From a virus: DNA of 59,745 nt. The stretch covers positions 1 to 59,745 of the IMG/VR virus record IMGVR_UViG_3300017991_000121; one strand, written 5' to 3'. Shown piece by piece: positions 13,532 to 59,473 of this stretch. A program made the position numbers and the translations under genes. Positions within the stretch are counted from its first letter, which is position 1, and every line of letters begins with the position of its first letter. The notes below the pieces were generated by a model, which worked only from the letters and a program-made list of their open reading frames with translations, searched no databases and was not told where the DNA came from.

Positions 13532-13552
13532 GGGAGGGCGCTCCAAACACCC

Positions 13553-13582
13553 TTGCCTTTTGCGCGGCCGTAGCGCTAGTCT
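13553..13582 (+). promoter_or_regulatory. promoter for scaffold/capsid genes
   Basis: TTGCCT (13553-13558), 18-bp spacer, TAGTCT (13577-13582). The ATG (13607) lies 24 nt further on with a CCAGGAGG ribosome site, so this message has a normal leader, unlike the leaderless genes. Confidence 0.65.
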
Positions 13583-13606
13583 TGCCCCCGCCAGGAGGAC
13601 TCCGAC

Positions 13607-14404: not shown

Positions 14405-14466
14405 CGGCCCCACCCAGGGGCACTCAACCGCCCCGCGCGAACGACTGACACAAGGAGACACACACC

Positions 14467-15882
14467 ATGGCCGCCGGACTCGGATCCATTCTTCCGCCCC
14501 TCGCTTTCCTCGACCCCATCGTGCAGGACAACACCCTGGCGCGCGAGTTTCGGGACGCTCTGTTCCCGCAGCTCCTGTTCCGCGAGGAAGCCATGCCCGA
14601 GAAGTGGGAGATCAACGTGGGCGATTCGCAGATCTTCACCCGGAGCAGCTTGCTGCCCCCGGCCGTGAAGCCGCTCACCCCCGGGACGGATCCCACGCCC
14701 AAGCAGCCGTCGTTCGAACAGTGGAGCGTCCGCGCCGAGCAGTACGGCGACTCGATGGACACCCACATGCCGTCGAGCCGCACCAGCCTGGCGCCGATCT
14801 TCGCTCGCAACGCCAAGACCCTGGGCCTCCAGGCTGGCCAGAGCCTCAACCGGGTGGCCCGTAACCGCCTGTTCTGCGCCTACACCGGCGGGGACACGGT
14901 GACCGACAATGCCGGTGCACCTTCCGCCACCCTCGTGGTCGCGAGCCTCAACGGGTTCACCACCACGATCGTCAACGGCCAGGAGGTCCCGATCAGCGGC
15001 GGCAACCCCAAGGTGGTGCGGATCAGCGGCGTGGCGGGAACCCACAACGTGATCGCGGCCGCCCCCGCCGATCCCAACAACCCCTTCGGCCCGGGTACCC
15101 TCACCCTGGCCGCGGCCACCACGTTCCTGGCAGGCGCTCGCGTCCTGGCCGTGGACGCTCCCCGGATCATCCGGGTGGGTGGTGCCGCCACCGTGGACGG
15201 CCTCACCGCCGTGTCGGCTCTTTCCCTCAAGGAGATCCGCCAGGCCATTGCCATCCTCCGGCGCAACCGGGTGCCCACCCACGCGGACGGGTACTACCAC
15301 GTCCACCTGGACCCGGTGGCCGAGTCGCAGATCTACAACGACAACGAGTTCCAGCGCCTCAACCAGGGGGTGCCGGACGGTCTGCGCTACGCCGAGTTCG
15401 CCATCGGGCGCCTCCTGGGTGCGATCTTCTTCACCAACAACGAGAGCCCCAACGTGTTCAACAGCGACCCCCTCCAGGGCGCTGGTCTGGTGGGGAGCCG
15501 CCCCCTGTCCGCGGGTTCGGCTCTGGCCAGCCCCGAGCACTACGGCGAGGTCCGCAACGCCGCGGGCGTGGGCGTGATCCGCACGATCATCACCGGCGGC
15601 GGCTCCATCATGGAGAAGTGGATCGATGAGGAGAGCGACTACCTCACCGAGGCCGGGTACGTGGGCAAGGTGGGCCAGTTCTCGGTGGTCAACAACGGGA
15701 TCCAGATCAGCACCGAGCGGATCCGGTACATCATCCGCGCCCCGCAGGACCGCCTCCAGCAGCAGGTCTCCCAGTCCTGGTCCTGGAGTGGTGACTGGGG
15801 CGTCCCCACGGACCTGCTCGGCGGCCAGACCGGCGGCCGGTACAAGCGGGCCATCGTGATCGAGAGCGGGTCGGAGGACTAG
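14467..15882 (+). CDS. major capsid protein
   Basis: A 471-residue protein with ribosome site AAGGAGA. It follows the scaffold gene and is closed by a strong terminator, as expected for the most expressed virion gene. The region about residues 275-325 (ADGYYHVHLDPVAESQIYND, then RYAEFAIGRLLGAIFFTNNE) has the 'dg.Yv.v.hP' and 'G.l.Gv.f...n' pattern seen in N4-gp56-type major capsid proteins with an HK97-like fold. There is no obvious maturation-protease gene next to it, and no N-terminal delta domain is evident. Confidence 0.8.
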   Translation: MAAGLGSILPPLAFLDPIVQDNTLAREFRDALFPQLLFREEAMPEKWEINVGDSQIFTRSSLLPPAVKPLTPGTDPTPKQPSFEQWSVRAEQYGDSMDTHMPSSRTSLAPIFARNAKTLGLQAGQSLNRVARNRLFCAYTGGDTVTDNAGAPSATLVVASLNGFTTTIVNGQEVPISGGNPKVVRISGVAGTHNVIAAAPADPNNPFGPGTLTLAAATTFLAGARVLAVDAPRIIRVGGAATVDGLTAVSALSLKEIRQAIAILRRNRVPTHADGYYHVHLDPVAESQIYNDNEFQRLNQGVPDGLRYAEFAIGRLLGAIFFTNNESPNVFNSDPLQGAGLVGSRPLSAGSALASPEHYGEVRNAAGVGVIRTIITGGGSIMEKWIDEESDYLTEAGYVGKVGQFSVVNNGIQISTERIRYIIRAPQDRLQQQVSQSWSWSGDWGVPTDLLGGQTGGRYKRAIVIESGSED

Positions 15883-36416: not shown

Positions 36417-37523
36417 ATGGCGGACGCACCCACCCAGCGCGACCTGTTCCTGGTAGGGCGCAACAACGCGCTCCTGAGCCCCACGCGCTTCGACCGCGCC
36501 ATCATCGACACGGACGGGTCCGACGTAAACACCGTCCTCAACAGCAGCGCCGCCATGGGGGAGGAGGTGGTGCGGTACCTCCAGGTGAGCCTCAACGAGC
36601 TTGCCCTGGCCACGTCGCGCGGGGAGGCCCTGGACCGGTGGGTGTACGACCGGTACCAACTCACCCGCAAGGAGGCCACCAACGCGGTGGTCACGCTCTC
36701 CCTCCAGCGGTCGGACGGCACCATTGGGTTCACCATCCCGGAGGGGAGCCGGTTTGGCACCGAGGATGGGGTGGTGTTCGCCATCGTCAACGACGTGGCT
36801 TTCGGCGCGGGTGTCCTGGGTCCGCTCACCGTCTTGGCCACCGCCGAGCGCACGGGGCCGGAGGGCAACGTGAGCGAAGGGACGATCACCCAGGTGCTCA
36901 CCGCCCAGGCGGACAGTTCCCTGGCGGTGACCAACCTCCAGGTGGCCGCGGGGGGCAACGAGCGGGAAACGGACGACGAGCTACGCGCCCGCGCCCGCGA
37001 TTTTTTCGTGACCGCCCGCCGGGGCACCCGGGAGGCGATCGAGTTCGGCGCCACGGAGGTGGGGCGGGTGGACCAGGCCAGTGCGGAGGAGGTGTTCCAG
37101 GAGAGCACGGGCCTCCCGGGATACCGGGTCCTCCTCAACATCAGCGACCCGGACGGCCAGAGCAACGCCGCCCTGGGGGACGAGGTGGCCCGGAGCCTGG
37201 ACGAGTACCGCGCCCTGGGAGTGCCCGTGAGCGTGGTGCCGGCGGTCCCCCAGTTCGTCAACATCGCCGCGAGCGGCCTCCAGTTCACCAGCGGCGCCAA
37301 CACCACCCAGGTGCTCCAGAACGCCGCCAACGCGGTGCTCGCCCTGGTCAACGGCCTGGCCCCAGGCGCCACCCTCCGGTACGCAGACATCCTGCGCGTC
37401 CTGTCCAACACCGAGCAGTTGATCGTGCCCAACGGGGCCGTGTCCACCCCCGCGGGGGACTTGGTGCCCCTCACCGGCACGGTCATCCGTACCACCCGCG
37501 ATCGGATCAGCCTCACGGGGTAG
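36417..37523 (+). CDS. baseplate J-like wedge protein
   Basis: A 368-residue protein after the gp25-like gene. Typical features of the J/Mu gp47 family are GEALDRWVYDRYQLTRKEAT ('gs.LD.la...gl.R..at'), TIGFTIPEGSRFGTEDGVVF ('..iP.Gt.f...dg..f'), GPEGNVSEGTITQVL (the 'G..gNv..g.i' phrase), then ERETDDELRARARDFF and TREAIEFGATEVGRVDQAS. This gp6-like protein forms the ring of wedges around the hub. Confidence 0.85.
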   Translation: MADAPTQRDLFLVGRNNALLSPTRFDRAIIDTDGSDVNTVLNSSAAMGEEVVRYLQVSLNELALATSRGEALDRWVYDRYQLTRKEATNAVVTLSLQRSDGTIGFTIPEGSRFGTEDGVVFAIVNDVAFGAGVLGPLTVLATAERTGPEGNVSEGTITQVLTAQADSSLAVTNLQVAAGGNERETDDELRARARDFFVTARRGTREAIEFGATEVGRVDQASAEEVFQESTGLPGYRVLLNISDPDGQSNAALGDEVARSLDEYRALGVPVSVVPAVPQFVNIAASGLQFTSGANTTQVLQNAANAVLALVNGLAPGATLRYADILRVLSNTEQLIVPNGAVSTPAGDLVPLTGTVIRTTRDRISLTG

Positions 37524-45236: not shown

Positions 45237-46260
45237 CCCCAACGCCACCCCCAAGGATGTCGCCCTCCTGACCTCCGCCGGCGCGCCCGTGGACGCCGCG
45301 GGGGCGTACCTGGGCCAACTGGCCCCCCAACTGGACGACCAGGGCGCCGCGGACCACGTGGCCCGCCTGTCCCTGTATCTCCAGGAGGAGGCCATGCACC
45401 TGCGCTCCATGGCGCGGGCCAAGCTGGAGTACCTCCAGGAGCAGTGGGACAAGGAGGACGGGGAGAGCGCGCCCGTCGATCACGACTGGCTGTACGCGGT
45501 GTACGACCAGCGGGCCGTCACCGACCGCGGCGCCGACAACGTGAAGTGGTACAACCCGTTCACGGACGAGAACGACTCGTCCGGCAGCACCCGCAACACC
45601 TACAAGCGGGGGATCTGCTTCCACCACACCGCGGTGGCCGGGGGGTTCGGCACCCACGGATCCCGCCGGGACTACTGGGAGAAGCAGATCGACAGCGGCC
45701 TATGGACTCCCAAGGTCCCCCAGCCCAACGGCAAGATGGTCCAGACGGAGTGGATCGACCAACCCCGTGGCGCCGCATGGGAGGAGCTGTCCGCCGCCGA
45801 GCGGGATCAAGCGTGGGTTCGGGCCATGGCGTTGGCCGACCGGTATCGGGGGTACAAGCCCCAGCAGTACAACACCGGCGTGCCGTACCACGTGGTGAGT
45901 GGCGCCAACTCGGTCCTGTACCTCAACCTGCCGTTCCGGTGGGTCACCTGGCATGGCAACGGCGCCAACAACTGGTACTTGGGCTTCGCCTGGGACGCCA
46001 ACAGCAACGACGACAACCTGCACGAGGAGGATATGGAAGCCGACGTGCGCAGGGTGATCGAGATCGGCCGCGGTGAGGGGCACTTCGCTGACGGCCTGGA
46101 GTTCACCATGCACTGCGCCTTCACCAACAAGCCCACGGACGCGGGGCGCAAGTTCGCGGAGTTCCTGGTGGACCTGGCCGACAAGGTGGGCGCCACGATC
46201 CGCATGGACTACAAGGCCAAGGACAGCTACTCGTCCTTCAACGACGTGCTCGCGGCGTGA
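45229..46260 (+). CDS. second PGRP-type amidase-like protein
   Basis: A 343-residue protein after the holin candidate. The first 100 residues are helical. Then KRGICFHHTAVAGGFGTH (first His), VPYHVVSGANSVLYLNL and WVTWHGNGANNWYLGFAWD (the 'aWHag..N...iGie' strand), and MHCAFTNKPTDAGRKF ('H......K.DpG') follow the N-acetylmuramoyl-L-alanine amidase fold. There is no peptidoglycan-binding domain. Two amidases in one phage suggest one for lysis and one for entry, or different cut sites; which is which cannot be told from sequence. Confidence 0.7.
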   Translation: MPSPNATPKDVALLTSAGAPVDAAGAYLGQLAPQLDDQGAADHVARLSLYLQEEAMHLRSMARAKLEYLQEQWDKEDGESAPVDHDWLYAVYDQRAVTDRGADNVKWYNPFTDENDSSGSTRNTYKRGICFHHTAVAGGFGTHGSRRDYWEKQIDSGLWTPKVPQPNGKMVQTEWIDQPRGAAWEELSAAERDQAWVRAMALADRYRGYKPQQYNTGVPYHVVSGANSVLYLNLPFRWVTWHGNGANNWYLGFAWDANSNDDNLHEEDMEADVRRVIEIGRGEGHFADGLEFTMHCAFTNKPTDAGRKFAEFLVDLADKVGATIRMDYKAKDSYSSFNDVLAA

Positions 46261-47750
46261 ACCCACTCCAGGCAGAGGAACGTGCCCGGCTCCGCCTGCG
46301 GCAGCAGGTGCTCCGGGCGCGGCGGGACAGCGTGGAGTTCGTCCACCGGATCGGCCGCCAGGAGGGGGACCGGCCGATCCGCATGGGCAAGGTCCACGTG
46401 GAGTGGCACCGGCTCATGGACGAGCACGACCGGTGCGTCCTGTTCGCGCCGGTGGGCCACGGCAAGAGCAACCAGATCACCCGGTGGCGCCTGCTGTACG
46501 AGATGGGGCGCAACCCCAACATCCGCATCGGGGTGATCTCGGTGAGCAAGAGCGGCGTCCCCTCCAAGTTCCTGTCCGCGATCAAGGCGGACATCGAGAC
46601 CAACAAGTGGCTGCGGGTGGTGTTCCCCCACCTCAAGCGGCAGCGGAAGGGTCAGCGCATGTGGAACGACGAGGGGATCATCATTGAGCGCACCCTGTCC
46701 CTCCCCGACCCCACGGTCCAGATGTTCGGCCTGTACGGCAAGATCCTGGGCTCCCGCCTGGACCTGATCGTTATTGACGACATCTGCAACCTGGAGAACA
46801 CCATGACCGAGCGCTCCCGGGACAAGATGTGGGAGTGGGTGAGCGGCGAGGTGCTGTCCCGCCTGCCGCGGGAGAGCGGCCGCGTGTGGGCGGTGGGCCA
46901 CGTGTGGCACCGGGAGGACGTGCTCCACCGACTGTCCCGGATCGAGGGCTACCACACCCGCAAGTACAGCGCGTTTGTCCCTGCGGAGGTTGGCGAGGCG
47001 CCGTTGATCCCAGAAATGTGGTCGATCAGCGGCCTGCGCCGCCGGGAGCAGGAGCTTGGCCGCTTGGCGCCCAACATGCTCCGCAACGTGATCCCCGCCT
47101 ACGACGACGCCCGGATCAAGGCGTCGGCCATCGAGCGGTGCCTCCTCCGCGGCCGCGGCGAATCCCTCAAGGACTCGTGGAACCCGGCGGACAGCCCCAC
47201 GTTCACCGGGGTGGACTTGTCCGTGGCGAGCGGCACCGGGGGTGACCTGGCGTGTGTCTTCACCATCACCGTCCTCCCAGACGGCACCCGCCAGTTGCTC
47301 GACATCCGCGCCGGGCGGTGGACCGGGCCGCGGATCCTCCAGGAACTACTGGACGTGCATCGGCGGTTCGGTTCGCTGATCATGGTGGAGAACAACGCCG
47401 CGCAGGACTACCTGATCCAGTTCGCGGGGGAACTGTCCACCTTGCCCCTCAAGCGCCACACCACCACGGCGCGCAACAAGTACCACATGGCCTTCGGGAT
47501 CGAGTCCCTGGGGACGGAGTTCGACCAGGGGAAGTGGATGATTCCCTGCGACGACAACCTCGTGCCGCCGCCGGAGGTGGCCGAGTGGCTCCGAGAGTGC
47601 CAGGCCTACACCCCCAGGGAGCACACCGGCGACCGCCTGATCGCGTCCTGGATCGCGCGGGAGTGCGCCCGGCAGGCAGGGTACGCGGGAGGGGCCTGGA
47701 CGTACCAGGACGACGCGGTCTACACCAACGTGGACACCCTGGTGCGGTGA
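46257..47750 (+). CDS. terminase large subunit
   Basis: A 497-residue protein starting at GTG 46257. Walker A-like CVLFAPVGHGKSNQITRW (about residues 64-71: PVGHGKS), Walker B LDLIVIDDI (about 169), then a nuclease domain beginning FTGVDLSVASGTGGDLACVF (about 316) with later acidic residues (MVENNAAQDYL). This is the two-domain layout of phage packaging motors: ATPase that translocates DNA into the prohead, nuclease that cuts the concatemer. It acts with the candidate small subunit at 44030 and the portal next door. Confidence 0.9.
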   Translation: MNPLQAEERARLRLRQQVLRARRDSVEFVHRIGRQEGDRPIRMGKVHVEWHRLMDEHDRCVLFAPVGHGKSNQITRWRLLYEMGRNPNIRIGVISVSKSGVPSKFLSAIKADIETNKWLRVVFPHLKRQRKGQRMWNDEGIIIERTLSLPDPTVQMFGLYGKILGSRLDLIVIDDICNLENTMTERSRDKMWEWVSGEVLSRLPRESGRVWAVGHVWHREDVLHRLSRIEGYHTRKYSAFVPAEVGEAPLIPEMWSISGLRRREQELGRLAPNMLRNVIPAYDDARIKASAIERCLLRGRGESLKDSWNPADSPTFTGVDLSVASGTGGDLACVFTITVLPDGTRQLLDIRAGRWTGPRILQELLDVHRRFGSLIMVENNAAQDYLIQFAGELSTLPLKRHTTTARNKYHMAFGIESLGTEFDQGKWMIPCDDNLVPPPEVAEWLRECQAYTPREHTGDRLIASWIARECARQAGYAGGAWTYQDDAVYTNVDTLVR

Positions 47751-47767: not shown

Positions 47768-49636
47768 ATGGCAGAGCAGGGCTCCAGCGGCGTGATGCGC
47801 GACGGCAAGGTGGTCACCCTTGCCGACCATGCCGGCGCGGAGGCCGGCAACGGCTTGGTGCGGGAGTACCTGTCCGCCATGCGAGTCCTGGGCCTGGAGG
47901 AGGACGACCGGTGCGTCATGCTCCGCCACTGCCAGTCGTTCTACGACGGCACCCAGCACGACCACACCGGCATGGACTGGAACGGGATCCCCCGGGACCC
48001 CGGGGTGGGGTACCTCCACGAGCGGCTAAAGCCCCAGGGGTTCGTGCCGGTCAACTCCAGCCAGTACGCAGCGCGCAAGCCGGACGCCCCCGTCCCCTTG
48101 GCGCGCCAGGTGGTGTCTCGGTTCACGGAGATGCTCCTCGGTGAGGGGCGGTGCCCCTCAATCCGGGTTCCCAGTGACCCCGCGAGCGAGGAGTACCTGG
48201 AGGCGGTATTCAAGTGCGCCGATCTGTGGGACGTGCTCGCGGAGGCTCGCGATGTGGCGGGCGCGTGCGGAACCGCGGCGGTGGCGGTGGGGATCACCGC
48301 CGGATGGATCAACGCCGAGGTGCTCCACCCCCGCAACTTGTGGGTGGCCGAGTGGGACAACGACGACCCCGGGTGGGCGCCGCGGGTGGTGGTGGAGCAG
48401 TACAAGGCCACCGTCCAGGTGCTCGATGACGGGGACGACGGCAACGGGCGCCTCAAGAGCGTGGACGTTTGGCGTACCCGCGCGTGGACCCCCGAGGAAG
48501 TGGTGTACTACGAGGACGTTCCGTGCGGCGACGTGCCCGACGACGGGATCCCCGAGCGAGAGCGCAAGCCCCACAAGTTCGGCGCGTGCCCCGTGGTGTG
48601 GTACCAGAACACCCGGGTCACCGCGTGCCCGGACGGCAAGCCCGACTGCGAGGGGACGTGGCCCCTCCTGGACAAGCTCGACCGCCTCCAGTCCCAGGTG
48701 TACAAGGCGGCCATCGCCAACACCGACCCCACCTTGGTGATCAAGGAGCCCCGGCACAGCCGTCGCCGCAACTCGATCATCCAGAAGGGGTCCACCGGCG
48801 CCATCCCCCTTCCCCCGGAGGGGTCGGCGGAGTACCTGGAGATGCAGGGCACGTCCGTCAAGGTGGGCCTGGAGGGGATCAACGCGCTGGTGAGCGAAGT
48901 CCTCCAGACGGTGGAGTGCGTGGTGATCTCCCCGGAGTACGCCAAGGCCTACCAGAGCGGCGAAGCCCTCCAGATTCTGTGGCGGTCCATGGAGAGCCGC
49001 GCCAACCGCCTCCGCGTCACCCTGGGCACCGCGATCCAGCGCCTGTGCTGGCTGATCCTGGAGGTGGGGACGGCCCACAAAGTGGCCAACGTGGAGGTGG
49101 TGGACCTCTCCAACCCGGAGAACTACCGCGGCCAGATCCTCCTGCCCCCGCGGCGAGTGGTGGAGGAGCCCGAGCCCCCAGACCCCCCGGAGCCCGGGGA
49201 GCCCCCGCCGCCCAAGCCCGAACCTGTGGTCACGTGGGAGCCCCACGACCCTGGCAACGCCCAAGCGCACGTGGTGCTGGACTGGCCGCCGTACTGGACC
49301 CCCACGGCCCAGCAGATCCTCGCGAGCGCCCAGGCCATGGCCACGGCCACCACCGCCAAGCAGATCATCAGCGCCGAGACCGCCACCCGCCACCTGGCCC
49401 AGATGATGGGCCATGACGGGGACGAGGAGGTGCGCCTCCTGGAGGCCGAGAAGGACAGCGGCATGGCCAAGATGATGGCCATGGGCGCCACCCTCAACGG
49501 GGTCCCGGACGACGTAGACGACGACGAGGACGAGGACGATGGGGACGGGGACGGCGACGGTGACGACGAGCCGCGGCCGCCCCAAAACCCCGCCAACGCA
49601 GCCCAGGCGGACGGGGACGGTGATGGTGACGCGTGA
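47768..49636 (+). CDS. portal protein (SPP1 gp6-like)
   Basis: A 622-residue protein between large terminase and MuF, the standard portal position. Characteristic phrases are VPLARQVVSRFTEMLLGEGR in the wing, WPLLDKLDRLQSQVYKAAIA, then SPEYAKAYQSGEALQILWRS in the stem/clip region. The C-terminal 45 residues are a strongly acidic Asp/Gly/Glu tail (DDDEDEDDGDGDGDGDDE). Twelve copies form the DNA gateway of the capsid. The ATG is fixed by a promoter 6 nt upstream. Confidence 0.8.
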   Translation: MAEQGSSGVMRDGKVVTLADHAGAEAGNGLVREYLSAMRVLGLEEDDRCVMLRHCQSFYDGTQHDHTGMDWNGIPRDPGVGYLHERLKPQGFVPVNSSQYAARKPDAPVPLARQVVSRFTEMLLGEGRCPSIRVPSDPASEEYLEAVFKCADLWDVLAEARDVAGACGTAAVAVGITAGWINAEVLHPRNLWVAEWDNDDPGWAPRVVVEQYKATVQVLDDGDDGNGRLKSVDVWRTRAWTPEEVVYYEDVPCGDVPDDGIPERERKPHKFGACPVVWYQNTRVTACPDGKPDCEGTWPLLDKLDRLQSQVYKAAIANTDPTLVIKEPRHSRRRNSIIQKGSTGAIPLPPEGSAEYLEMQGTSVKVGLEGINALVSEVLQTVECVVISPEYAKAYQSGEALQILWRSMESRANRLRVTLGTAIQRLCWLILEVGTAHKVANVEVVDLSNPENYRGQILLPPRRVVEEPEPPDPPEPGEPPPPKPEPVVTWEPHDPGNAQAHVVLDWPPYWTPTAQQILASAQAMATATTAKQIISAETATRHLAQMMGHDGDEEVRLLEAEKDSGMAKMMAMGATLNGVPDDVDDDEDEDDGDGDGDGDDEPRPPQNPANAAQADGDGDGDA

Positions 49637-52600
49637 GCGCCGAGATCCGCGAGCTGTTCCAGGCGCAGTCTGACGCGGTCCAGAACCTGTCCGCCCAGGC
49701 GCAAAAGCGCGCCCTACGGATCACCCAGGCGCGCCTCAAGGCGATCCGCAAGGAACTCCAGCGCCTGGAGCCTGGGTCGTGGGGGTACGCGTCCCGCGCG
49801 GCCACCATGCGCCAGTTGCAGGTAGCCGTGGGGGAACTGGCGGTCCTCCAGGGCCAGGCCCTCCAGGGCCACCTCCGCAAGGTGGGCGGGGTGTCGGCCC
49901 GCACCGCGGCCCAGACCCTGCGCCAACTGGACAAGCACTACGCAGGGGTGGTGCGCCCCCTTCGGTTCGACACCACCCGGTGGATCACGGAGAACGCCCA
50001 GATGGCAAGCCAGGTGCGCCTCCGGGAGTACAGCCAGTCCTTTGCTCGGTACGGCTCCCGCACCGTGTCCCGGATCGAGGAGGAGATCGCCGGCACCATT
50101 CTCACCGGGGAACCCTGGTGGAAGGCGCGGCAGAAAGTGTGGCAGGCCACCCGGCACGTCGTTGGGGATAACCAGTGGATGGTGGATCGGATCTGCCGCA
50201 CGGAGACGGCGGCCGCGTACAACGGCACCCAACTGGCCGCCATGATGGAGGAGGACGTAGACCCCGACGACCGCATGATGAAGCGCCTGGTGGCCACGTT
50301 CGACGGGCGGACGGGCAAGGACTCCGTGATGCTCCACGGTCAGACGGTGCCTGTGGACAAGCCGTTCGTGGACCCCTACTTCGGCAAGGAGTACATGGCG
50401 CCGCCCAACCGCCCCAACGACCGCGAGGTGATCGTCCCGTGGCGCCAGTCCTTCGGGGAGATGTACGCCGGGGGGAGCGAGGGGTTCATCGCGGACACCG
50501 CCGCCACGGACGAGTGGGGCGGCCCCGTGGTGGTGGCCGAAGGCAAGATGAGCGCCGCGGTTCAGCGGCGGCTCCGAGACCTGGCCAAGCGGAGCGCACA
50601 GCCCCGGAGCCTGGACGAGATCCGCCGCCAGATGGTCCGGGGGCAACTGGCCGACCTCCGCCGCCAGATGGACCAGTACCTCAAGATGCGCACGGGGATG
50701 ACCGCGGAGGAGGCCCTTCGCCTGGACACCACCCTCACCGGCCTTCGGCGGTCCATCGCTGGCCTGGAGGACGAGGGGGTGATGCTCGACCTGCGGATCG
50801 CGGACGCCAAGGCCAAGTTGGACATGCCCGAGGGGACGTTCGCCAAGACCCACGCGGCGGCGGAGTACGGGGTCAACCCCAAGACGGTCAACGCGGCGGT
50901 GAAGAAGGGGGACCTCAAGTACATCGACGTGGAACTGCCTGGGGGGCGCGTGGTCAAGGGCTTCGACGCGCAGGAGTTCCACGAGTGGGCGCGGGACGCC
51001 AAGAAGGTCCGGGGGTGGGACAAGCCCTTCCCGCCCAAGCCCCCGCCCCGCAAGCCCATCCACAAGCCCAAGCCCCCCACCCCGCCCAAGCCCCCGGACC
51101 CAGTGCCGCCGCGGCCGCCCAAGGTCCCCACGGTGGACGGGGTGGCCGTCACCGATGGCCGCCTCACGATCACCCGCGCGGGCGCGTCGGTGCAGGACAC
51201 GTGGGGGATCAACCCCAAGGCGATCAAGGCCGCCATCGACAGCGGGGACCTCAAGCTGATCAAGGTGGTGGGCCCTGACGGCAAGAAGACCAAGGGGTTC
51301 GACGCGGCGGAGTTTCAGGTGTGGGCCCGGGACGCCAAGAAGAAGCGGGGGTGGAAGGGGGACCACCCCGACATCACCGGCGGCAAGGTGGCCCCCAAGC
51401 CGGAACCGGGACCCAAGACCCCGCCCAAGCCCGCGCCCAAGCCCAAGGGGAAGGGCAAAACCGAGCCCAAGCCCAAGGCGCCCAAGCGCGTCCTGATCAG
51501 CAAGACCAAGGCCGCCAAGGAGGTGGGGGTGCCGGCCAAGGACATCAAGGCCGCCGTGGCCCGGGGTGAGTTGACGGAGTACGGGGCCAAGAAGCAACTG
51601 GACCTGGAGGAGGTCAAGGCCTGGGCCGCCAAGCACCAGGCCGGGCCCAAGCCCGGCAGGGCCATGGACCCCGCGCGGCGACCGGGGGCGTGGCGAGACA
51701 AGACCGCCACGGACATCATCGACCGCAAGGAACTTCTCCGCGCCACCAAGCGGATCGACGCGGACGACCTCAAGGAGGGAGCGGAGGTTCTGTGGAAGGG
51801 GAACATCCCCGCCCGGGTCAAGGAGATCGACGGCCAGTATGTGGTCCTGGACGTGGGCGGCGGCGCCACCATCGAGACCGCGATGGAACGGTACTCCGTC
51901 ACCCTGTACACCGACAGCGCCGCGTTCCGCCGCCACCTGGGGGAGCCCAAGTCCAAGATCGAAGCCCTGCGGCGAGCCCAGGCGCGGATGGAGGCCCACC
52001 ATCACCAGGCTCGCCGCGGGAGTCCTGCGGATCGCTTGTACCGGGACGTGGGGGACAGCCGCCCGGACCTGGCCCAGGCGCGCACCGACGCGCGGGTGGC
52101 CGAGTTCAAGCAGGATCTCACCCGTGAGTTCCGGGTGGCGTACTCCGACGCCAAGATGGCCTCCACCGCGGATGGGGCCGGGCAGTTGCAGATCGGCAAG
52201 CCCCCCGACCTCCCCGAAGGCCTGCGGAGTCCAGTGGGGATGCGGCGTGATGGCAAGCCCGACGCACTGGCGTACCAGCCCGTGGAGGTGCGCAAGGAGG
52301 TGCAACGGCGCGCCAAGGCGGCCGGGAAAGTCCAAGGCCCCTCCCCCGAGTGGCGCGTGTTCGTGGAGGACACCCTCCAGGCGATGCACAAGGAGCGATC
52401 CGCGGTGGTCCGCAAGGCCATCGACGCCGATGAGGCCACGTTCATGGCGTCCAGAAAGCGCCAGCGGAAGGCCATGGCGGAACACGCCCGCAGGGGCCGC
52501 AAGTCCGACTACGCCCCCAAGCGGCTGGACGAGTGGGAGGAGATCGGCACGGAGATCCGCGGGACCGTGGCCCGGGAGACCCGCCAGTTGGTGGAGGACG

Positions 52601-53295
52601 TGGCGTGGGCGCCAGACCAGATCGACTGGATTCAGGCCCTCCCGCCCAAGGACGAGAGCGGGGGGACGTTCGCGTTCTGCGGCCCCGGCGGCGGGTATGG
52701 CGGGGACACCGCGGAACTCATGGCCAACGGCCAGCGGCGCCCCTTGACGTACTTCGGGTACGGCCAACGGTCCATGGGCAACCGCGCCCAGGTGATGCAC
52801 AACTGGGAGCCGGGGGTGTTGGCCCACGCCGATGGGAAGATCGCCCACAACGCCATCCCCCGCGGCAAAGCCCGCAAGAAGCTCATGGACGACCTGGCCG
52901 ACGCGGGGGTCACGGGCAAGGACGCCCACGCCGAGATCGCGCGATCGGCCGTGGTCCGCCACGAGTTCGGCCACGCCGTGGACCACAACCTCCAGCACCT
53001 GGCCCGCCAGGGCAACGCGGAGGCCCAGGCCGTCCTGGACTTGTGGGAGAACGCGGTCAAGCAGGTCAACCGGGCCACGTGGCCGGACCTGGGCGGCCGC
53101 CCCGGCAAGAAACTGCGCCACGACGCCGAGCCCAAGGACGGGACGTGGGGCCAGTTGAGCCGGTACGCGTCGAGCAACCCCCGGGTGGAGGGTCTGGCCG
53201 AGGCCTTCGCCATGGCCACGTTCGGGGACTGGGACACCATCCCCAAGCCCCTCCACCGACCCCTCCAGATCATGCTCGGCCTTCTCAAGCCGTGA
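49633..53295 (+). CDS. giant MuF-type head protein with HTH repeats and zincin
   Basis: A 1220-residue protein, GTG overlapping the portal stop. Residues 1-290 are a MuF/SPP1 gp7 domain (VDRICRTETAAAYNGTQLAA, then APPNRPNDREVIVPW). Residues about 402-673 hold three HTH-like repeats joined by two Lys/Pro linkers (see repeat entry). Residues about 690-760 look like an SH3-type barrel (GAEVLWKGNIPARVKEIDGQ). The C-terminus has VRHEFGHAVDHN (about 1110) and NPRVEGLAEAFAMATF (about 1190), the zinc motif and third ligand of a zincin. Head proteins of this class carry enzymes into the host with the DNA. Confidence 0.75.
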   Translation: MSAEIRELFQAQSDAVQNLSAQAQKRALRITQARLKAIRKELQRLEPGSWGYASRAATMRQLQVAVGELAVLQGQALQGHLRKVGGVSARTAAQTLRQLDKHYAGVVRPLRFDTTRWITENAQMASQVRLREYSQSFARYGSRTVSRIEEEIAGTILTGEPWWKARQKVWQATRHVVGDNQWMVDRICRTETAAAYNGTQLAAMMEEDVDPDDRMMKRLVATFDGRTGKDSVMLHGQTVPVDKPFVDPYFGKEYMAPPNRPNDREVIVPWRQSFGEMYAGGSEGFIADTAATDEWGGPVVVAEGKMSAAVQRRLRDLAKRSAQPRSLDEIRRQMVRGQLADLRRQMDQYLKMRTGMTAEEALRLDTTLTGLRRSIAGLEDEGVMLDLRIADAKAKLDMPEGTFAKTHAAAEYGVNPKTVNAAVKKGDLKYIDVELPGGRVVKGFDAQEFHEWARDAKKVRGWDKPFPPKPPPRKPIHKPKPPTPPKPPDPVPPRPPKVPTVDGVAVTDGRLTITRAGASVQDTWGINPKAIKAAIDSGDLKLIKVVGPDGKKTKGFDAAEFQVWARDAKKKRGWKGDHPDITGGKVAPKPEPGPKTPPKPAPKPKGKGKTEPKPKAPKRVLISKTKAAKEVGVPAKDIKAAVARGELTEYGAKKQLDLEEVKAWAAKHQAGPKPGRAMDPARRPGAWRDKTATDIIDRKELLRATKRIDADDLKEGAEVLWKGNIPARVKEIDGQYVVLDVGGGATIETAMERYSVTLYTDSAAFRRHLGEPKSKIEALRRAQARMEAHHHQARRGSPADRLYRDVGDSRPDLAQARTDARVAEFKQDLTREFRVAYSDAKMASTADGAGQLQIGKPPDLPEGLRSPVGMRRDGKPDALAYQPVEVRKEVQRRAKAAGKVQGPSPEWRVFVEDTLQAMHKERSAVVRKAIDADEATFMASRKRQRKAMAEHARRGRKSDYAPKRLDEWEEIGTEIRGTVARETRQLVEDVAWAPDQIDWIQALPPKDESGGTFAFCGPGGGYGGDTAELMANGQRRPLTYFGYGQRSMGNRAQVMHNWEPGVLAHADGKIAHNAIPRGKARKKLMDDLADAGVTGKDAHAEIARSAVVRHEFGHAVDHNLQHLARQGNAEAQAVLDLWENAVKQVNRATWPDLGGRPGKKLRHDAEPKDGTWGQLSRYASSNPRVEGLAEAFAMATFGDWDTIPKPLHRPLQIMLGLLKP
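50836..51650 (+). repeat. three HTH-like coding repeats
   Basis: Copy 1 (50836-51015): AAAEYGVNPKTVNAAVKKGD, then GFDAQEFHEWARDAKKVRG. Copy 2 (51157-51370): WGINPKAIKAAIDSGDLK, then GFDAAEFQVWARDAKKKRG. Copy 3 (51487-51650): AAKEVGVPAKDIKAAVARGE, then DLEEVKAWAAKHQ. Each has the excisionase/MerR-type layout: helix-turn-helix, 'G-x-L', a short wing, then an acidic-start helix. Linkers are Pro/Lys-rich. Confidence 0.65.
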
Positions 53296-53326: not shown

Positions 53327-53605
53327 ATGGCAGAGCCCCAAGACCCCGGCCCCGTGGTGGACTACAACCCGATTTGCCGACACTGCATCCACTCCGGCGC
53401 CGGCAACGGCGAGGCCAAGTGGGACTGCGGCGCGTACCCCGATGGCGTCCCCCTGCGGATCCTCCAAGGTGACCCCCACGTGGGGGTGGCGAGCGACCAG
53501 GCAGGCACCCAGACTTTCACCCCGATCCCCTACATGATCCCCACCCTGCGCGGGATGGTGGCGGAGGGGGAACTGCCGCGGAAAGTGCTCTCCGCGCTGG
53601 GTTAG
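53327..53605 (+). CDS. small zinc-binding protein, 92 aa
   Basis: ATG at 53327. PICRHCIHSGAGNGEAKWDC followed by GAYPDGVPLRILQG belongs to a recurrent phage pattern: CxxCxH...C-x-(A/F)YPdGIP. Three Cys and a His could bind one zinc. Likely an accessory factor at the end of the packaging operon; function unknown. Confidence 0.6.
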   Translation: MAEPQDPGPVVDYNPICRHCIHSGAGNGEAKWDCGAYPDGVPLRILQGDPHVGVASDQAGTQTFTPIPYMIPTLRGMVAEGELPRKVLSALG

Positions 53606-53864
53606 CCGGCATCCCCCGCGCCGCGGCGCCCTTGCTCGTGCCAGGAGGTGAGTTGACCGCGGCGCGGGGTGGCCTTTCCCAACGCTGCGCAGGTCCGCGC
53701 GGCCGCGTCAACCCCCCGCGGCCACCCTGTGCGCGGGGTGGGCTACCCCCCAAAAGTGCGCGTTTTGCGCACCCCCACGGGGGACTCCTAGAGGATGGGC
53801 CCCGGCTCGACCCCGCTCCTCCAGGCCGCCGGGGCACCGTGCAGGGGGGCTGCGTCCCGTGTTC
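53606..53864 (+). other. non-coding region with dense hairpins
   Basis: No credible gene. Contains GGCCGCG/CGCGGCC (near 53701-53722), GTGCGC-GTTTT-GCGCAC (53756-53772), and CCCCC-AC-GGGGG just after. These could end transcription of the packaging operon, though no long T-tract follows. Together with 53865-53968 it forms the control region of the AAA+ gene. Confidence 0.5.
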
Positions 53865-53885
53865 GGTTATTTGGTGAAAATAACC
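53865..53885 (+). promoter_or_regulatory. 19-bp dyad operator, copy 1
   Basis: GTTATTTGGTGAAAATAAC (53866-53884) with arms GGTTATTT and AAATAACC. On the reverse strand it is 16/19 identical to the second copy at 57167-57185. It overlaps the -35 of the promoter for the AAA+ gene and is strikingly A+T rich for this genome. Confidence 0.75.
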
Positions 53886-53901
53886 GGGGAGGGGGTATAT
53901 T
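53871..53901 (+). promoter_or_regulatory. promoter of AAA+ gene
   Basis: TTGGTG (53871-53876), 19-bp spacer and TATATT (53896-53901). The -35 lies inside the operator, so a bound regulator would block it. Confidence 0.55.
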
Positions 53902-53906
53902 TGAGA

Positions 53907-53927
53907 CCCGGGGGACGGACCCCCGGG
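53907..53927 (+). other. GC hairpin in 5' leader of AAA+ gene
   Basis: CCCGGGGG (53907-53914) pairs with CCCCCGGG (53920-53927), 5-nt loop. It is just after the start of transcription and upstream of the ribosome site AAGGAAACGAG. A near match sits in the leader of the 57253 gene. Confidence 0.55.
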
Positions 53928-53968
53928 AGACACCACACCAACCCAAACCCAAGGAAACGAGACAGACC

Positions 53969-55345
53969 ATGCAGGACTACACCACCACCCTCACCCACCG
54001 CGAGCTTCTCAACATCATGATCGCCGCCTGGTTCACCCCCGGCCGGAAGGGCTCCGCCGCGGTTGCCACCAACGACACCGCCGCGCCCCGCGGCCGCTCC
54101 GCCGCCGACACCGCCGACACCCCGGACGCCGACACCGCCCCGACCGACGCCGCGTGGGTCCGGGAACACGGTGCCGCGATCCCCTTCGGACTCAACCTGC
54201 TGGTGTGGGATGAGCCCGGAACCGGGAAGACCTCCGCGGTGGAGTTGCTCGGCTGGGTGTGCGGGTTCGACCACGTCCAGACGATCGCCCTCAACAACCG
54301 TGCCCCGGAGGACGTGGGCGGCTACGCGGTGCCCAACAAGACCCGGACGGGGATGACCAAGCTCCCCGACGGGTGGGTGGACGCCGCCAACGGCGCCCGC
54401 CGCTCCCTGGTCGTGTTTGACGAGTTCACCGTGGACGAGGACCGCCAGGCCGCCGCCCTCCGGGTGTTCTCCGAGCGGATGGCCGGGGAGTTCCGCATCC
54501 TCCCCCACGTGCGCACCGTGGCGCTCGCCAACCCCCCGATGTGCGCCGCCACCCCTAACGAGATCACCCCGCCCAACGCCAACCGGTTCGGGCACTGCAC
54601 GTTCGTCCCCTTCAGTGAGGACGAGTTCGGTGACTGGCTGATCGCCGGCGCCGGGAGCCAGGAGATCGAGCAGATCGACCCCGACGCCCACGAGGCCCGC
54701 ATCCTGGCCGCCTGGCCCGAGGCGTTCGGTAAGGCCGCCGCCCTGGTCAAGGGGTACCTGCGCCGGTTCCCCCACCACCTCCACCAGATGCCCAAGGGCC
54801 AGGGGTTCCGCAACCCTGGTGACGGTGAGGAGGACAACCTCCGGTGGGCGAGCCGCCGGATCTGGGAGAACGTGGCCCGTGCCGTTGCCTCCGCCGAGTG
54901 CCACGGCCTCACGGAGGTGGAGACGGACTCGTTCATCGGGTTCTTCCTTCCCGCCGGTATCGCCGCGGGGTTCAACACTTTCCGCCGTGAGCAGGACATC
55001 CCGGAGCCCCGCGCCCTCCTGACGGGGAACGCCAAGTTCCGCATCACCCCCAAGGTGGACCGGACCTTCGCGGTGCTGGAGATGTGCGCCGGGTTCCTGG
55101 CCAACACCACGGACCCCGCACGGGTGGACATGGCCCGGGTGTGGTGGGGCCTGGCCGCTGAGGTGCTGGAGCACACCCACGGGGGGAAGGACTTTGTGGT
55201 CCCCTCCGCCAAGATCATGGCCCGGCCCAAGGCCAAGGGCGGCGCCGGGCTGGGACAGGACGTGGTCCCCGAGGCCGCCCCGGTGGTGACCGCCTTGTAC
55301 GACGTGCTCGCCGCGGAACGGGACGCCAAGCGGGCCGCCAAGTAG
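53969..55345 (+). CDS. AAA+ ATPase (MoxR/CbbQ-like)
   Basis: A 458-residue protein. The ATG at 53969 is chosen over earlier in-frame starts because it follows the promoter, leader hairpin and AAGGAAA site. Walker A is DEPGTGKTSA (about 81-88; the first Gly of the motif is Asp), Walker B LVVFDEFTVDEDRQ (about 147), and sensor 1 VALANPPMCAATPNE (about 184). This is the MoxR/CbbQ pattern. Such ATPases act with VWA proteins, and one follows at once, so the pair probably forms a remodelling complex. Confidence 0.8.
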   Translation: MQDYTTTLTHRELLNIMIAAWFTPGRKGSAAVATNDTAAPRGRSAADTADTPDADTAPTDAAWVREHGAAIPFGLNLLVWDEPGTGKTSAVELLGWVCGFDHVQTIALNNRAPEDVGGYAVPNKTRTGMTKLPDGWVDAANGARRSLVVFDEFTVDEDRQAAALRVFSERMAGEFRILPHVRTVALANPPMCAATPNEITPPNANRFGHCTFVPFSEDEFGDWLIAGAGSQEIEQIDPDAHEARILAAWPEAFGKAAALVKGYLRRFPHHLHQMPKGQGFRNPGDGEEDNLRWASRRIWENVARAVASAECHGLTEVETDSFIGFFLPAGIAAGFNTFRREQDIPEPRALLTGNAKFRITPKVDRTFAVLEMCAGFLANTTDPARVDMARVWWGLAAEVLEHTHGGKDFVVPSAKIMARPKAKGGAGLGQDVVPEAAPVVTALYDVLAAERDAKRAAK

Positions 55346-55376
55346 GACCACCACGGACTAGGAAAGGAACAGACCC

Positions 55377-56705
55377 ATGACCACCGACGCCATCACCACC
55401 GCCACCCTGGACCCCGCGATCCGCCGCAAGGCCCGTGATGTCCTGTCCGTTGCCCGCGCGATCTTCCGGGGTCGCGCCCCCTACTGGTACAACGCCCTGT
55501 GCAAGTTGATCGTGGTGGAGGCCCCCGGGCTCGCCACCTACGCCGTGTCGAGCCGGGGACAGCTCCTCCACGACCCCTCCACCACGGTCCAGTGGGCCGA
55601 CCAGTGGGGGACCGACACGATCGCCGGGGTCCTGGCCCATGAGGTGCTCCACATCATCCTGGAACACCTCCTCCGCCGGGGGAACCGGACACCCCGCCGC
55701 TGGAACATCGCCGCCGACTTGTTCATCAACTGCCTCCTCCGGGACGCGGGGTGGAAGCTCCCCCCGGTGGGCGTGTTCCCCGAGCAGTTCAAACACAAGA
55801 CCACCGGCGCCCCCCTGCCCGGCGGCCTGACCGCGGACGAGTATTACGACCTCCTCCCCGACTACGAGAACGACCAGGGGGGTGACGCGGACAAGGACGG
55901 GAACGGCCAGGAGGGCCCGTGTAACGGCGACTGCGGCTCCGGTGCCGGCGGTGAGGCCATGCCGGAGGAGCCGGAGGCCGGTGCCAACGGTGGGTCGGAC
56001 GGGGAACGGTCCCTGGACGAGCTTCGGAAGGCCGCCGAGGACGCGGCCCGTGAGACGGCCAACGCCGCCAAGTCCAACCCCGGTTCGGTGCCCGGTGCGA
56101 TGCGCCGGTGGGCGGAACAGGCCCTCAAGCCCCCGGTGGTCCCCTGGACGCAGGTGCTCAACCGGGCCGGGACCGCGGTGATGGCCAAGGCCGGACGGGG
56201 GCGCCGTTCCTACCGCCGGCCCCACCGCCGCCAGTCGTGCATGGGCGCCCATCCCCGGACCCCGGTCCTCCCCTCCAGGGAGACCAACGTGTGCGACGTG
56301 TGGTTCGCGGTGGACACGAGCGGCTCGATGTCGGCCCGGGACCTCACCCGCGCCGCCTCCGAGATCGACTCGGTTCTCCGCCGCCGGAAGGGCCGGGTGG
56401 CCACCCTGGCGTGTGACGCCGCGGTCCAGGGTGAGCCCAAGACCGTCAAGTCCATCCAGGAGGTGCTTCCCATGCTCCGCGGCGGCGGGGGGACGGACTT
56501 CCGACCGATCTTCGCCAAGGTGATGGAACAACCGGCCAAGGCCCGTCCCGACCTCGTGGTGGTGATCACGGACGGGTTCGGCCCCGCCCCCGAAACGGCG
56601 CCGCCGGGGGTGGCGGTGATCTGGGTGATCACGGAGGGTGGCCGGGCCCCGGTGTCCTGGGGGGAGATCATCCACATCAACGAGTCCAAGTTGCGGGCGG
56701 CGTAG
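55377..56705 (+). CDS. zincin-like/VWA-like protein, AAA+ partner
   Basis: A 442-residue protein 31 nt after the AAA+ gene, with AGGAAAGGAA upstream. The N-terminal domain has LAHEVLHIILEHLLRRGN (HExxH at about 88) and NIAADLFINCLLRDAGW, a layout I know from phage and bacterial 'metallopeptidase-like plus VWA-like' proteins. An acidic, Gly-rich linker follows (about 165-220). The C-terminal domain has WFAVDTSGSMSARDLTRA (MIDAS DxSxS near 313), then VVVITDGFGP. VWA proteins present substrates to MoxR-type ATPases. Confidence 0.8.
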   Translation: MTTDAITTATLDPAIRRKARDVLSVARAIFRGRAPYWYNALCKLIVVEAPGLATYAVSSRGQLLHDPSTTVQWADQWGTDTIAGVLAHEVLHIILEHLLRRGNRTPRRWNIAADLFINCLLRDAGWKLPPVGVFPEQFKHKTTGAPLPGGLTADEYYDLLPDYENDQGGDADKDGNGQEGPCNGDCGSGAGGEAMPEEPEAGANGGSDGERSLDELRKAAEDAARETANAAKSNPGSVPGAMRRWAEQALKPPVVPWTQVLNRAGTAVMAKAGRGRRSYRRPHRRQSCMGAHPRTPVLPSRETNVCDVWFAVDTSGSMSARDLTRAASEIDSVLRRRKGRVATLACDAAVQGEPKTVKSIQEVLPMLRGGGGTDFRPIFAKVMEQPAKARPDLVVVITDGFGPAPETAPPGVAVIWVITEGGRAPVSWGEIIHINESKLRAA

Positions 56706-56731
56706 TCCCGCCTGCGGGTGTGGTGCCCATG

Positions 56732-56760
56732 GACCCCCGGGGGATCGACCCCCGGGGGTC
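56732..56760 (+). terminator. terminator after VWA gene
   Basis: A perfect 12-bp stem, GACCCCCGGGGG (56732-56743) with CCCCCGGGGGTC (56749-56760), 5-nt loop ATCGA, followed by GCTTTGTCT. It ends the AAA+/VWA transcript. Confidence 0.75.
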
Positions 56761-57162
56761 GCTTTGTCTGGTGCCCCAGCACGCCCCGTCGAGCGAGCCC
56801 CATCCCTTCCCGGTCCCACGGTGGACCCCCGGGCACCCCGGGGCTCGCACGGGGGACGTGCGGTCCTGGACGAGGGTGGGGCCGGTAGCTGTCCGCCAAG
56901 GCTCCAGCAGACCCCCATTTCCAGCGTGCTGGGCCCCGCTCCAGTCGGAAGGGGAAGGTGAGACCCCTCCACCCGGGCCAGCGCCGGGGGGCCTGCGGAG
57001 CCTGCGGGGGCCTCGTGATCTGCCCCAGATCACCACTCCTGGCCGGGGTGGGCCCCTGGTGCTCGGAAGGGTACGCTGCCGTCTCGTTTGCGGGGTGCCA
57101 CGGGGTGCTCCCGTAGGGGGTTCGCAGAAGGCCCCGCACAGGGGTGCTGCACCCCGCGGTGA
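56761..57162 (+). other. 400-bp non-coding region
   Basis: No credible gene: the open frame from 56720 lacks a ribosome site and has shadow-like composition. It contains an exact palindrome (57013-57031), three GGGGTGC copies (57092, 57102, 57141, the last within GGGGTGCTGCACCCC), and a control region at its end. It could hold regulatory sites, a structured RNA or a replication element; nothing decides between these. Confidence 0.45.
57013..57031. repeat. perfect 19-bp palindrome
   Basis: GTGATCTGCCCCAGATCAC: two 8-base arms (57013-57020, 57024-57031) around CCC. It is in non-coding DNA, with no T-tract after it, so it looks more like a protein-binding site than a terminator. Confidence 0.6.
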
Positions 57163-58218: not shown

Positions 58219-58812
58219 ATGCACCTATCACCCACCATCTACGACACCCTCACTCCCGTGGTCGAGCAGGCCGTGCGCGCCACGTCGCGCCGTTGGTCCG
58301 ACATGGACCCGGAAGACCTACGGCAGTTCGCCTGGCTCACCGTGCTGGAGAGCCTGCCCACGTTCGACCCCTCCAAGGGGAAGCTGGTCCACTACATGAG
58401 CCGGATCCTCAAGCGGAGCCTGCCCAACGAGGCCCGGCGCACCCTGTGCCCCGTCCGGGGACCCCGGAACAAGGAACACACCATCCCCGCCGCGGCCGTC
58501 CGCAAGACGAGCGGGGAAGTGGCCGACGCCGCACTGCTCGGCTGCGCCGCGGCGGTGTTCCGCCCCGATGTGGCCCTGGACGCCTACCGCATGGCCAAGG
58601 CGGCCCGGGAGGCCGTGGCCGCGGTGACCCGCGACCAGCCGGAGGTGGCCGCCGCGGTCCTGTCCGGGGGAGACATCGGCCCCCGCCACCTGGCCGCCGC
58701 GTTCGGCGGTGCCCCGGAGGACTACCAGGCCGCCACCCGTCGCGTGTACCAAGACCTGCGTGGTATCCTCACGGTGCGCCTGCGCCAGGACTTGCGTGAC
58801 ACCTCGACTTGA
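58219..58812 (+). CDS. sigma-70-like factor (region 2 type)
   Basis: A 197-residue protein with GGAGG upstream. DMDPEDLRQFAWLTVLESLP followed by TFDPSKGKLVHYMSRILKRS is the sigma-70 region 2 pattern ('DL.Q...l.l..a...FDp.kG..f..y....ir'). The C-terminal region (DIGPRHLAAAFGGAPEDYQA followed by ATRRVYQDLRGIL) could be the region 4 HTH. A phage sigma factor would direct host RNA polymerase to phage promoters. Its targets are not known; the recurring TAgnnT sites are candidates but also look like host promoters. Confidence 0.65.
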   Translation: MHLSPTIYDTLTPVVEQAVRATSRRWSDMDPEDLRQFAWLTVLESLPTFDPSKGKLVHYMSRILKRSLPNEARRTLCPVRGPRNKEHTIPAAAVRKTSGEVADAALLGCAAAVFRPDVALDAYRMAKAAREAVAAVTRDQPEVAAAVLSGGDIGPRHLAAAFGGAPEDYQAATRRVYQDLRGILTVRLRQDLRDTST

Positions 58813-59473
58813 ACCTGCCCTCGACCTAGCTCTCGTGGCGGATCCGCCGCGGAACCCCAACGACATGCGCCCCCACGAGTATGAACTGCTCGTGGGGGCG
58901 ATCCGCGCAGAGGGGTTCCTCCAGCCGGTGCTGGTGCGGGATCTCCTCCCTCCGGGAAGCTCCGCCGCCGACGCGCGAGATCCCGCGTCTCGTCTGTACG
59001 AGATCGTGGACGGGGTCCATCGCTGCCGCGCGGCCCGGGACGCCAACCTGTCCCACGTTCCGGCGGTGGTCCTCCCCATGGACTACCCCGAGGAGAAAGC
59101 GCGCCTCCTCCAGATCGGGATGAACCGTCTCCGGGGGGAGTTGGACTTGGTGGCCGTGGGGGAGACGCTCGCGGAGTTGAGCGAGCTTGTGCCGGACCTG
59201 GACCTTGCCCTGTCCGGGTTCACCGAGGCGGAGGTGGACGGCCTCCTGGCCGCCCAAAGCCCGATCAACCCCAACGACCTCCTGGGGGACGGGATGGACG
59301 CGCCGGATCCCGCCGACGCCCAGCCCGAGGCGGCGGTATTCATGCTGGAGATCCCCCTGGACTCCGCGGCGGAGTTGAAGGCCGCCAAGAAGTCCCTTCG
59401 CCGCGCGGGGGGCAAGGGGAACCGAGACTTGGCCAAAGGCCTCCGGGCGGCGCTAGGTCTGGGGGATGGCTGA
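58796..59473 (+). CDS. ParB-like nuclease-fold protein
   Basis: A 225-residue reading from GTG 58796 (overlapping the sigma-like gene by 17 nt); GTG 58835 is an alternative. NPNDMRPHEYELLVGAIRAE, GFLQPVLVRD and YEIVDGVHRCRAARDANLSH followed by VPAVVL are the ParB/Srx boxes ('N....d....L..SI...G...Pi.V......y.ivdGh.R..Aa...g...ip.iv'). Single ParB-fold proteins next to DNA methyltransferases are common in phages. Possible roles are DNA binding or nicking. Confidence 0.75.
   Translation: MTPRLEPALDLALVADPPRNPNDMRPHEYELLVGAIRAEGFLQPVLVRDLLPPGSSAADARDPASRLYEIVDGVHRCRAARDANLSHVPAVVLPMDYPEEKARLLQIGMNRLRGELDLVAVGETLAELSELVPDLDLALSGFTEAEVDGLLAAQSPINPNDLLGDGMDAPDPADAQPEAAVFMLEIPLDSAAELKAAKKSLRRAGGKGNRDLAKGLRAALGLGDG

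What the first reader, a model, noticed from the sequence alone, without database searches (positions are those of the whole stretch)
49633..53295. MuF head protein with three excisionase-type HTH repeats and a C-terminal zincin
This 1220-residue protein combines a MuF domain, three repeats of the form GVxPKxIxxAVxxGxL...FDxxEFxxWA joined by Lys/Pro linkers, an SH3-like region and HEFGH plus a downstream Glu motif. MuF proteins with enzymatic ends are known as 'polyvalent' or toxin-bearing proteins. I am not aware of such a series of DNA-binding-like repeats within one. It could grip DNA at the portal and deliver a protease on ejection.
Basis: partly seen in the sequence, partly recalled or inferred. 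Interest (0 to 1): 0.75.

Follow-up and report, generated by a model that had tools for sequence, protein, structure and literature searches.

The report
Phage head protein with DNA-binding repeats
In an uncultured tailed phage, the protein that normally sits inside the head at the DNA exit carries three excisionase-like DNA-binding modules and ends in a likely protease; relatives keep the head part and often the DNA-binding modules but swap the enzymes, suggesting an effector packed with, and perhaps tethered to, the phage DNA.

Summary
ORF 49633-53295 (1220 aa) directly follows the portal gene and has a MuF-type head domain (residues 1-290). Three excisionase/MerR-type winged-HTH repeats follow (401-462, 511-574, 619-668), joined by Lys/Pro linkers. 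A lethal-factor-like zincin motif (HEFGH at 1110-1114, Glu at 1186/1190) lies near the C-terminus. A model built only from relatives' repeats found all three places in this protein (E 3e-4; best of 2000 shuffles 0.48). AlphaFold2 of repeat 1 (pLDDT 77) matched RacA, BldC, Pukovnik Xis and lambda gpNu1. The zincin is supported by sequence profiles, but its structure model failed. The 'SH3-like' region is weak. The protein is not unique. Four relatives share 54-62% identity over the MuF part: three carry one or two such repeats (one is cut by its contig end) and one shows none. The C-termini have turned over: HipA-kinase-like plus ART-like, ART-like, or nothing recognised. This is a polyvalent/MuF-effector protein (known kind) with an apparently unreported DNA-binding module, a new variant. 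DNA binding, presence in the virion, injection and proteolysis are inferred, not shown. Best reading: a portal-anchored injected effector held on phage DNA by the HTH array.

The parts
47768..49636 (+). portal protein (SPP1 gp6 type), stop overlaps the start of the MuF gene by 4 nt
   Evidence: Pfam SPP1_portal 2.4e-17; PHROG portal 3.6e-23
46257..47750 (+). terminase large subunit
   Evidence: PHROG 38, 1.5e-46
49633..53295 (+). 1220-residue MuF / triple HTH / zincin protein
49633..50502 (+). MuF-type head domain, residues 1-290; 54-62% identical in L009, L010, L026, L028
50833..51018 (+). repeat R1, residues 401-462, excisionase/MerR-type winged HTH
51019..51162 (+). Lys/Pro-rich linker 1 (20 Pro in 48 residues, net +6)
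51163..51354 (+). repeat R2, residues 511-574 (57% identical to R1)
51355..51486 (+). Lys/Pro-rich linker 2
51487..51636 (+). repeat R3, residues 619-668, shorter wing
51748..51927 (+). possible small beta (SH3/YajC-like) region, residues 706-765; weak
52633..53292 (+). zincin-like metallopeptidase region, residues 1001-1220
52960..52974 (+). HEFGH zinc motif, residues 1110-1114
53327..53605 (+). 92-aa ORF after the MuF gene, no family match; position of a possible immunity gene, nothing shown

Best explanation
The protein is a portal-anchored effector of the MuF/polyvalent type. The MuF N-terminus docks it on the portal inside the procapsid (inferred from SPP1 gp7, its position and its similarity). 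The basic middle, three excisionase-type winged HTH modules on Lys/Pro linkers (net charge about +31 over residues 401-705), binds the packaged phage DNA near the portal. On ejection the protein enters the host with, or on, the DNA (inferred). The C-terminal zincin then cleaves a host protein, or the effector itself, at the start of infection (inferred). Shown by sequence or model: domain order, HTH fold of the repeats, zincin motif with homologues, recurrence of the repeats in relatives and turnover of the enzymes. Not shown: virion location, DNA binding, injection, proteolysis.
For: Gene order terminase-portal-MuF, with a portal/MuF overlap also in L009, L010 and L028. MuF and head-morphogenesis matches. 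Repeats: shuffle-controlled profile, HTH_17 above cut-off in L026, E-H-H-E-E-H model with pLDDT 77.5, Foldseek best hits RacA-DNA, BldC-DNA, Pukovnik Xis, GlnR-DNA, gpNu1 and RdfS at probability up to 0.99 although E-values are only 0.04-0.3, sequence profile to Pukovnik Xis 1.8e-4, nearest annotated phage genes are excisionases/RDFs (weak E-values). The repeats occur in L026, L009 and L028, starting in L009 and L028 at the same place after the MuF part as R1. Zincin: 6e-11 against other phage zincins, lethal-factor catalytic domain 1.3e-7 by profile. MuF-zincin fusions elsewhere: L111, L094; VG15-zincin with a SAP/HeH DNA-binding motif and ART: L055. Literature: SPP1 gp7 is targeted inside the procapsid by the portal and the primary paper's title calls it a DNA-binding protein (PMC6316719); MuF toxins, 20% with a metallopeptidase (PMC5576092); injected polyvalent proteins with zincins and infrequent HTH domains (PMC5512222).
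Against: No virion, DNA-binding or protease data exist. Pfam scores for this protein itself are below curated cut-offs. The zincin model failed (pLDDT 52, no fold match). L010 has the same MuF part but no visible HTH repeat (it is cut by its contig end), so the array is not needed for the MuF function. MerR-like domains can also bind proteins.
Confidence: 0.55

Rival explanations
1. The HTH array recognises specific sites in the phage genome (packaging site, genome end or early promoters), so the protein is a packaged regulator or genome-end organiser rather than a general tether; the zincin is a separate cargo or releases it.
For: Excisionase/MerR-type domains are usually sequence-specific and often bind direct repeats cooperatively (general knowledge); the fold match includes the cos-binding domain of lambda gpNu1. 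Three linked copies suit a repeated site.
Against: No convincing triple-repeat site was found in the intergenic stretches examined; linkers are long, varied and basic, which suits non-specific binding as well; repeat number differs between relatives.
Confidence: 0.25
2. The zincin is mainly a self-processing peptidase that frees the DNA-binding and/or head part inside the capsid or after entry, not an effector against host proteins.
For: Autoprocessing by zincins is proposed for polyvalent proteins (PMC5512222).
Against: The zincin is the last domain with nothing downstream to release, and relatives have other enzymes or none in its place.
Confidence: 0.15
3. The repeats are structural or protein-protein modules (spacers, scaffold contacts) that no longer bind DNA.
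For: Strong divergence between copies; a MerR-like domain that binds protein (CbpM) is among the weaker fold matches; L010 shows no repeat.
Against: The region is strongly basic and the best fold and sequence matches are DNA-bound proteins and excisionases.
Confidence: 0.1
4. The similarities are chance in a low-complexity Lys/Ala/Pro-rich protein.
For: Pfam scores for this protein are below cut-offs.
Against: Shuffle controls, an independent relative above cut-off, and absence of the repeats from the other large ORFs examined outside this lineage.
Confidence: 0.02

Closest known systems
SPP1 gp7 / Mu gpF (MuF) minor head proteins
   Same: MuF domain, gene directly after the portal; gp7 is portal-bound and described as DNA-binding (title cited in PMC6316719)
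   Different: SPP1 gp7 is far shorter and lacks HTH repeats and enzymes (general knowledge)
MuF polymorphic toxins (Jamet et al. 2017, PMC5576092)
   Same: MuF head plus variable C-terminal enzyme, metallopeptidase among them
   Different: Those are described from temperate phages, mostly of Firmicutes, with small downstream ORFs; no HTH array is mentioned in the text searched; no integrase is seen here
Polyvalent proteins (Iyer et al. 2017, PMC5512222)
   Same: Several unrelated domains in one injected protein; zincin is the commonest domain; rare DNA-binding domains including other HTH
   Different: Tandem excisionase-type HTH array on Lys/Pro linkers between MuF and enzyme not described in the text searched
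Excisionases / RDFs (Pukovnik Xis, 4j2n) and BldC, RacA wHTH
   Same: Predicted fold and sequence profile of each repeat
   Different: Those are small separate DNA-binding proteins; here three copies sit inside a head protein
Head protein of L055 (VG15, zincin, SAP/HeH, ART)
   Same: Head domain, DNA-binding motif and enzymes in one chain
   Different: Unrelated head family and another DNA-binding fold

Membership tests
MuF (PF04233) minor head protein | Matches the MuF profile | tested here: inconclusive
   20.1 bits, below the 29.6 cut-off; close relative L009 30.9 bits, above it; PHROG head morphogenesis 2e-9
MuF (PF04233) minor head protein | Gene follows the portal gene in the packaging module | tested here: met
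MuF (PF04233) minor head protein | Bound to the portal inside the virion | not testable with these tools
   no virions available
MuF polymorphic toxin | Conserved MuF N-terminus with exchangeable C-terminal enzyme | tested here: met
   MuF part 54-62% identical across relatives; C-termini zincin, kinase-like + ART-like, ART-like, or none recognised
MuF polymorphic toxin | Encoded by a temperate phage with a downstream immunity gene | tested here: inconclusive
   no tyrosine integrase in the 59.7-kb fragment; a 92-aa ORF follows but has no match
Polyvalent protein | Multiple domains of unrelated activities in one virion-delivered chain | tested here: met
   domain content met; delivery itself not testable
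HTH_17 / excisionase-type winged HTH | Passes the family profile | tested here: inconclusive
   R1 17.5 bits, below the cut-off of 27; homologous repeat in L026 34.9 bits, above it
HTH_17 / excisionase-type winged HTH | Winged HTH fold | tested here: met
   AF2 model pLDDT 77.5, best matches MerR/Xis folds; modest E-values, one repeat modelled
HTH_17 / excisionase-type winged HTH | Binds DNA | not testable with these tools
   needs a binding assay
Zincin metallopeptidase, lethal-factor-like catalytic class | HExxH plus downstream Glu in homologous context | tested here: met
   (relatives were chosen by both motifs, so motif conservation in A5 is partly by construction)
Zincin metallopeptidase, lethal-factor-like catalytic class | Zincin fold | tested here: inconclusive
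   model failed, pLDDT 52

The most novel reading that the evidence does not exclude
A phage lineage has built into its portal-bound MuF protein a covalent array of excisionase-type DNA-binding modules that ties an exchangeable effector enzyme to the packaged genome, so that the leaving DNA tows the effector into the host or keeps it on the phage DNA afterwards.
Probability: 0.3. Interest if true: 0.7.

Novelty: new variant of a known kind. Interest (0 to 1): 0.5.

Why it matters
How head-packaged effectors stay with the genome and pass through the tail is poorly understood. A recurring DNA-binding array between the portal anchor and an exchangeable enzyme gives a concrete, testable tether model, and a module that could be looked for in other phages.

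Tried and rejected
tblastn of the whole protein, the repeats and the C-terminus against 50,697 phage records: no match; only the MuF part hits Gordonia phages at about 34%. Structure and fold search of the zincin region: uninformative. Chance origin of repeats and zincin: rejected by shuffles. SH3-like homology to L026: weak, not claimed. HTH repeats as a general feature of MuF proteins: not found in about 30 gammaproteobacterial MuF loci nor in the other large ORFs of the loci fetched. Triple operator-like sites in intergenic stretches: nothing convincing. Tyrosine integrase: none. Single-protein PDB search: nothing. An HTH_17 search of the L010 record found no repeat there.

Full report
Observation. 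The window is a 59.7-kb linear virus record with contractile-tail genes: major head (PHROG, 14467-15882), weak tail sheath (20698-23238), baseplate wedge (36417-37523), endolysin, then terminase, portal and the ORF in question. ORF 49633-53295 has the coding signature of its neighbours and starts inside the portal stop codon.

MuF part. The Pfam MuF score is below cut-off (20.1 vs 29.6 bits). PHROG head-morphogenesis families match at 2e-9 and 1e-7, and the N-terminal 300 residues are 54-62% identical to proteins in the same position in four other contigs. L009 passes the Pfam cut-off.

Repeats. R1 and R2 are 57% identical over 56 aa, R1 and R3 36% over 50 aa; R1 and R2 are also clearly related as DNA. 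Relatives carry the same kind of repeat: L026 two (one passes Pfam HTH_17 with 34.9 bits), L028 two, L009 at least one before its contig ends. A profile from the relatives' five repeats alone hits this protein at all three places (E 2.9e-4, per-place scores low; best of 2000 shuffles 0.48). Among 918 large frames from all loci fetched, only this lineage's MuF proteins score convincingly. AlphaFold2 of R1 with eight repeats gives strand-helix-helix-strand-strand-helix at pLDDT 77.5. Foldseek's top matches are RacA-DNA, BldC-DNA, Pukovnik Xis, MerR regulators, GlnR, gpNu1 and RdfS (probability up to 0.99, E-values only 0.04-0.3). The profile's best PDB sequence match is Pukovnik Xis, 1.8e-4. The nearest annotated phage genes to the L026 repeat are excisionases and RDFs, at weak E-values. 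'Excisionase-type HTH' is therefore right. R1-R3 with their linkers (residues 401-705) carry a net charge of about +31.

C-terminus. No Pfam family matches. A pattern scan for HEFGHA[..]D in viral contigs gave many phage zincins. Those also bearing Y-x-E-xx-AE downstream align with the window protein (both motifs were selection criteria). A profile of them without the window hits it at 6e-11, against 0.94 for the best shuffle. The family profile matches the catalytic domain of lethal factor at 1.3e-7, the same class Iyer et al. report for polyvalent-protein peptidases (PMC5512222). This is a fold-class relation of the catalytic domain only; no toxin delivery parts are present. Two of these relatives are themselves MuF-zincin proteins (L111, L094); two others are VG15 head proteins (L122, L055), and L055 also holds a SAP/HeH DNA-binding motif and an ART. 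The zincin structure model failed.

Variation. The MuF part is conserved while the rest turns over. The window has three HTH and a zincin. L026 (1972 aa) has two HTH, two HipA-kinase-like domains related to each other and an ART-like C-terminus read from motifs only. L010 (cut by its contig end) has no visible HTH and an ART-like end (PF03496, 17.3 bits, below cut-off; PHROG minor head protein 1.4e-5). L028 (in a gammaproteobacterial MAG contig) has two HTH and no recognised enzyme. More distant L006 and L012 have short MuF proteins (319 and 369 aa). The anchor, the DNA-binding array and the enzyme thus behave as separable modules.

Mechanism. SPP1 gp7 is brought into the procapsid by the portal, and its primary paper calls it a DNA-binding protein (PMC6316719). 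Most simply, this lineage added a stronger or specific DNA grip to such an anchor and hung an exchangeable enzyme on the end. Steps shown: domain order, fold of the repeats (predicted), zincin motif and homology, modular turnover. Steps inferred: packaging, DNA binding, injection, proteolysis. Rivals are given separately; site-specific binding is the most serious.

Known or new. MuF effectors and polyvalent proteins are known kinds (PMC5576092, PMC5512222), and rare HTH domains in polyvalent proteins have been mentioned. The tandem excisionase-type array between MuF and enzyme was not found in the literature searched, which covers open-licence papers only. I rate it a new variant of a known kind.

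Noticed in passing
53795-56705: A MoxR-like AAA ATPase (PHROG 1297) followed by a DUF2201 metallopeptidase/VWA protein lies just after the MuF gene; L026 has a similar ATPase ORF after its MuF gene (13428-14687).
   Followed up: partly
56729-56760 and 56822-56833: Intergenic tandem copies of GACCCCCGGGGG forming a perfect 12-nt inverted repeat, with a partial third copy downstream, in a 500-bp gap; could be a regulatory or partition site, but 6 of 100 shuffles give as many matches.
   Followed up: partly
58709-59473: ParB_N-domain protein (Pfam 35 bits, above cut-off) after a sigma-70 region 2-like protein (58219-58812) at the end of the record.
   Followed up: no
L026 10277-11880: Two tandem HipA-kinase-like domains inside a phage head protein; similar domains occur in several cultured phages in genes annotated as ADP-ribosyltransferase or hypothetical.
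   Followed up: partly
L055 4803-8726 (-): 1308-residue frame with VG15 head domain, HEFGH zincin motif, Rho_N/SAP/HeH motif and ADP-ribosyltransferase.
   Followed up: no
9115-11220: 701-aa protein with a weak secretin-like match (18.3 bits, below cut-off) in a phage structural region.
   Followed up: no
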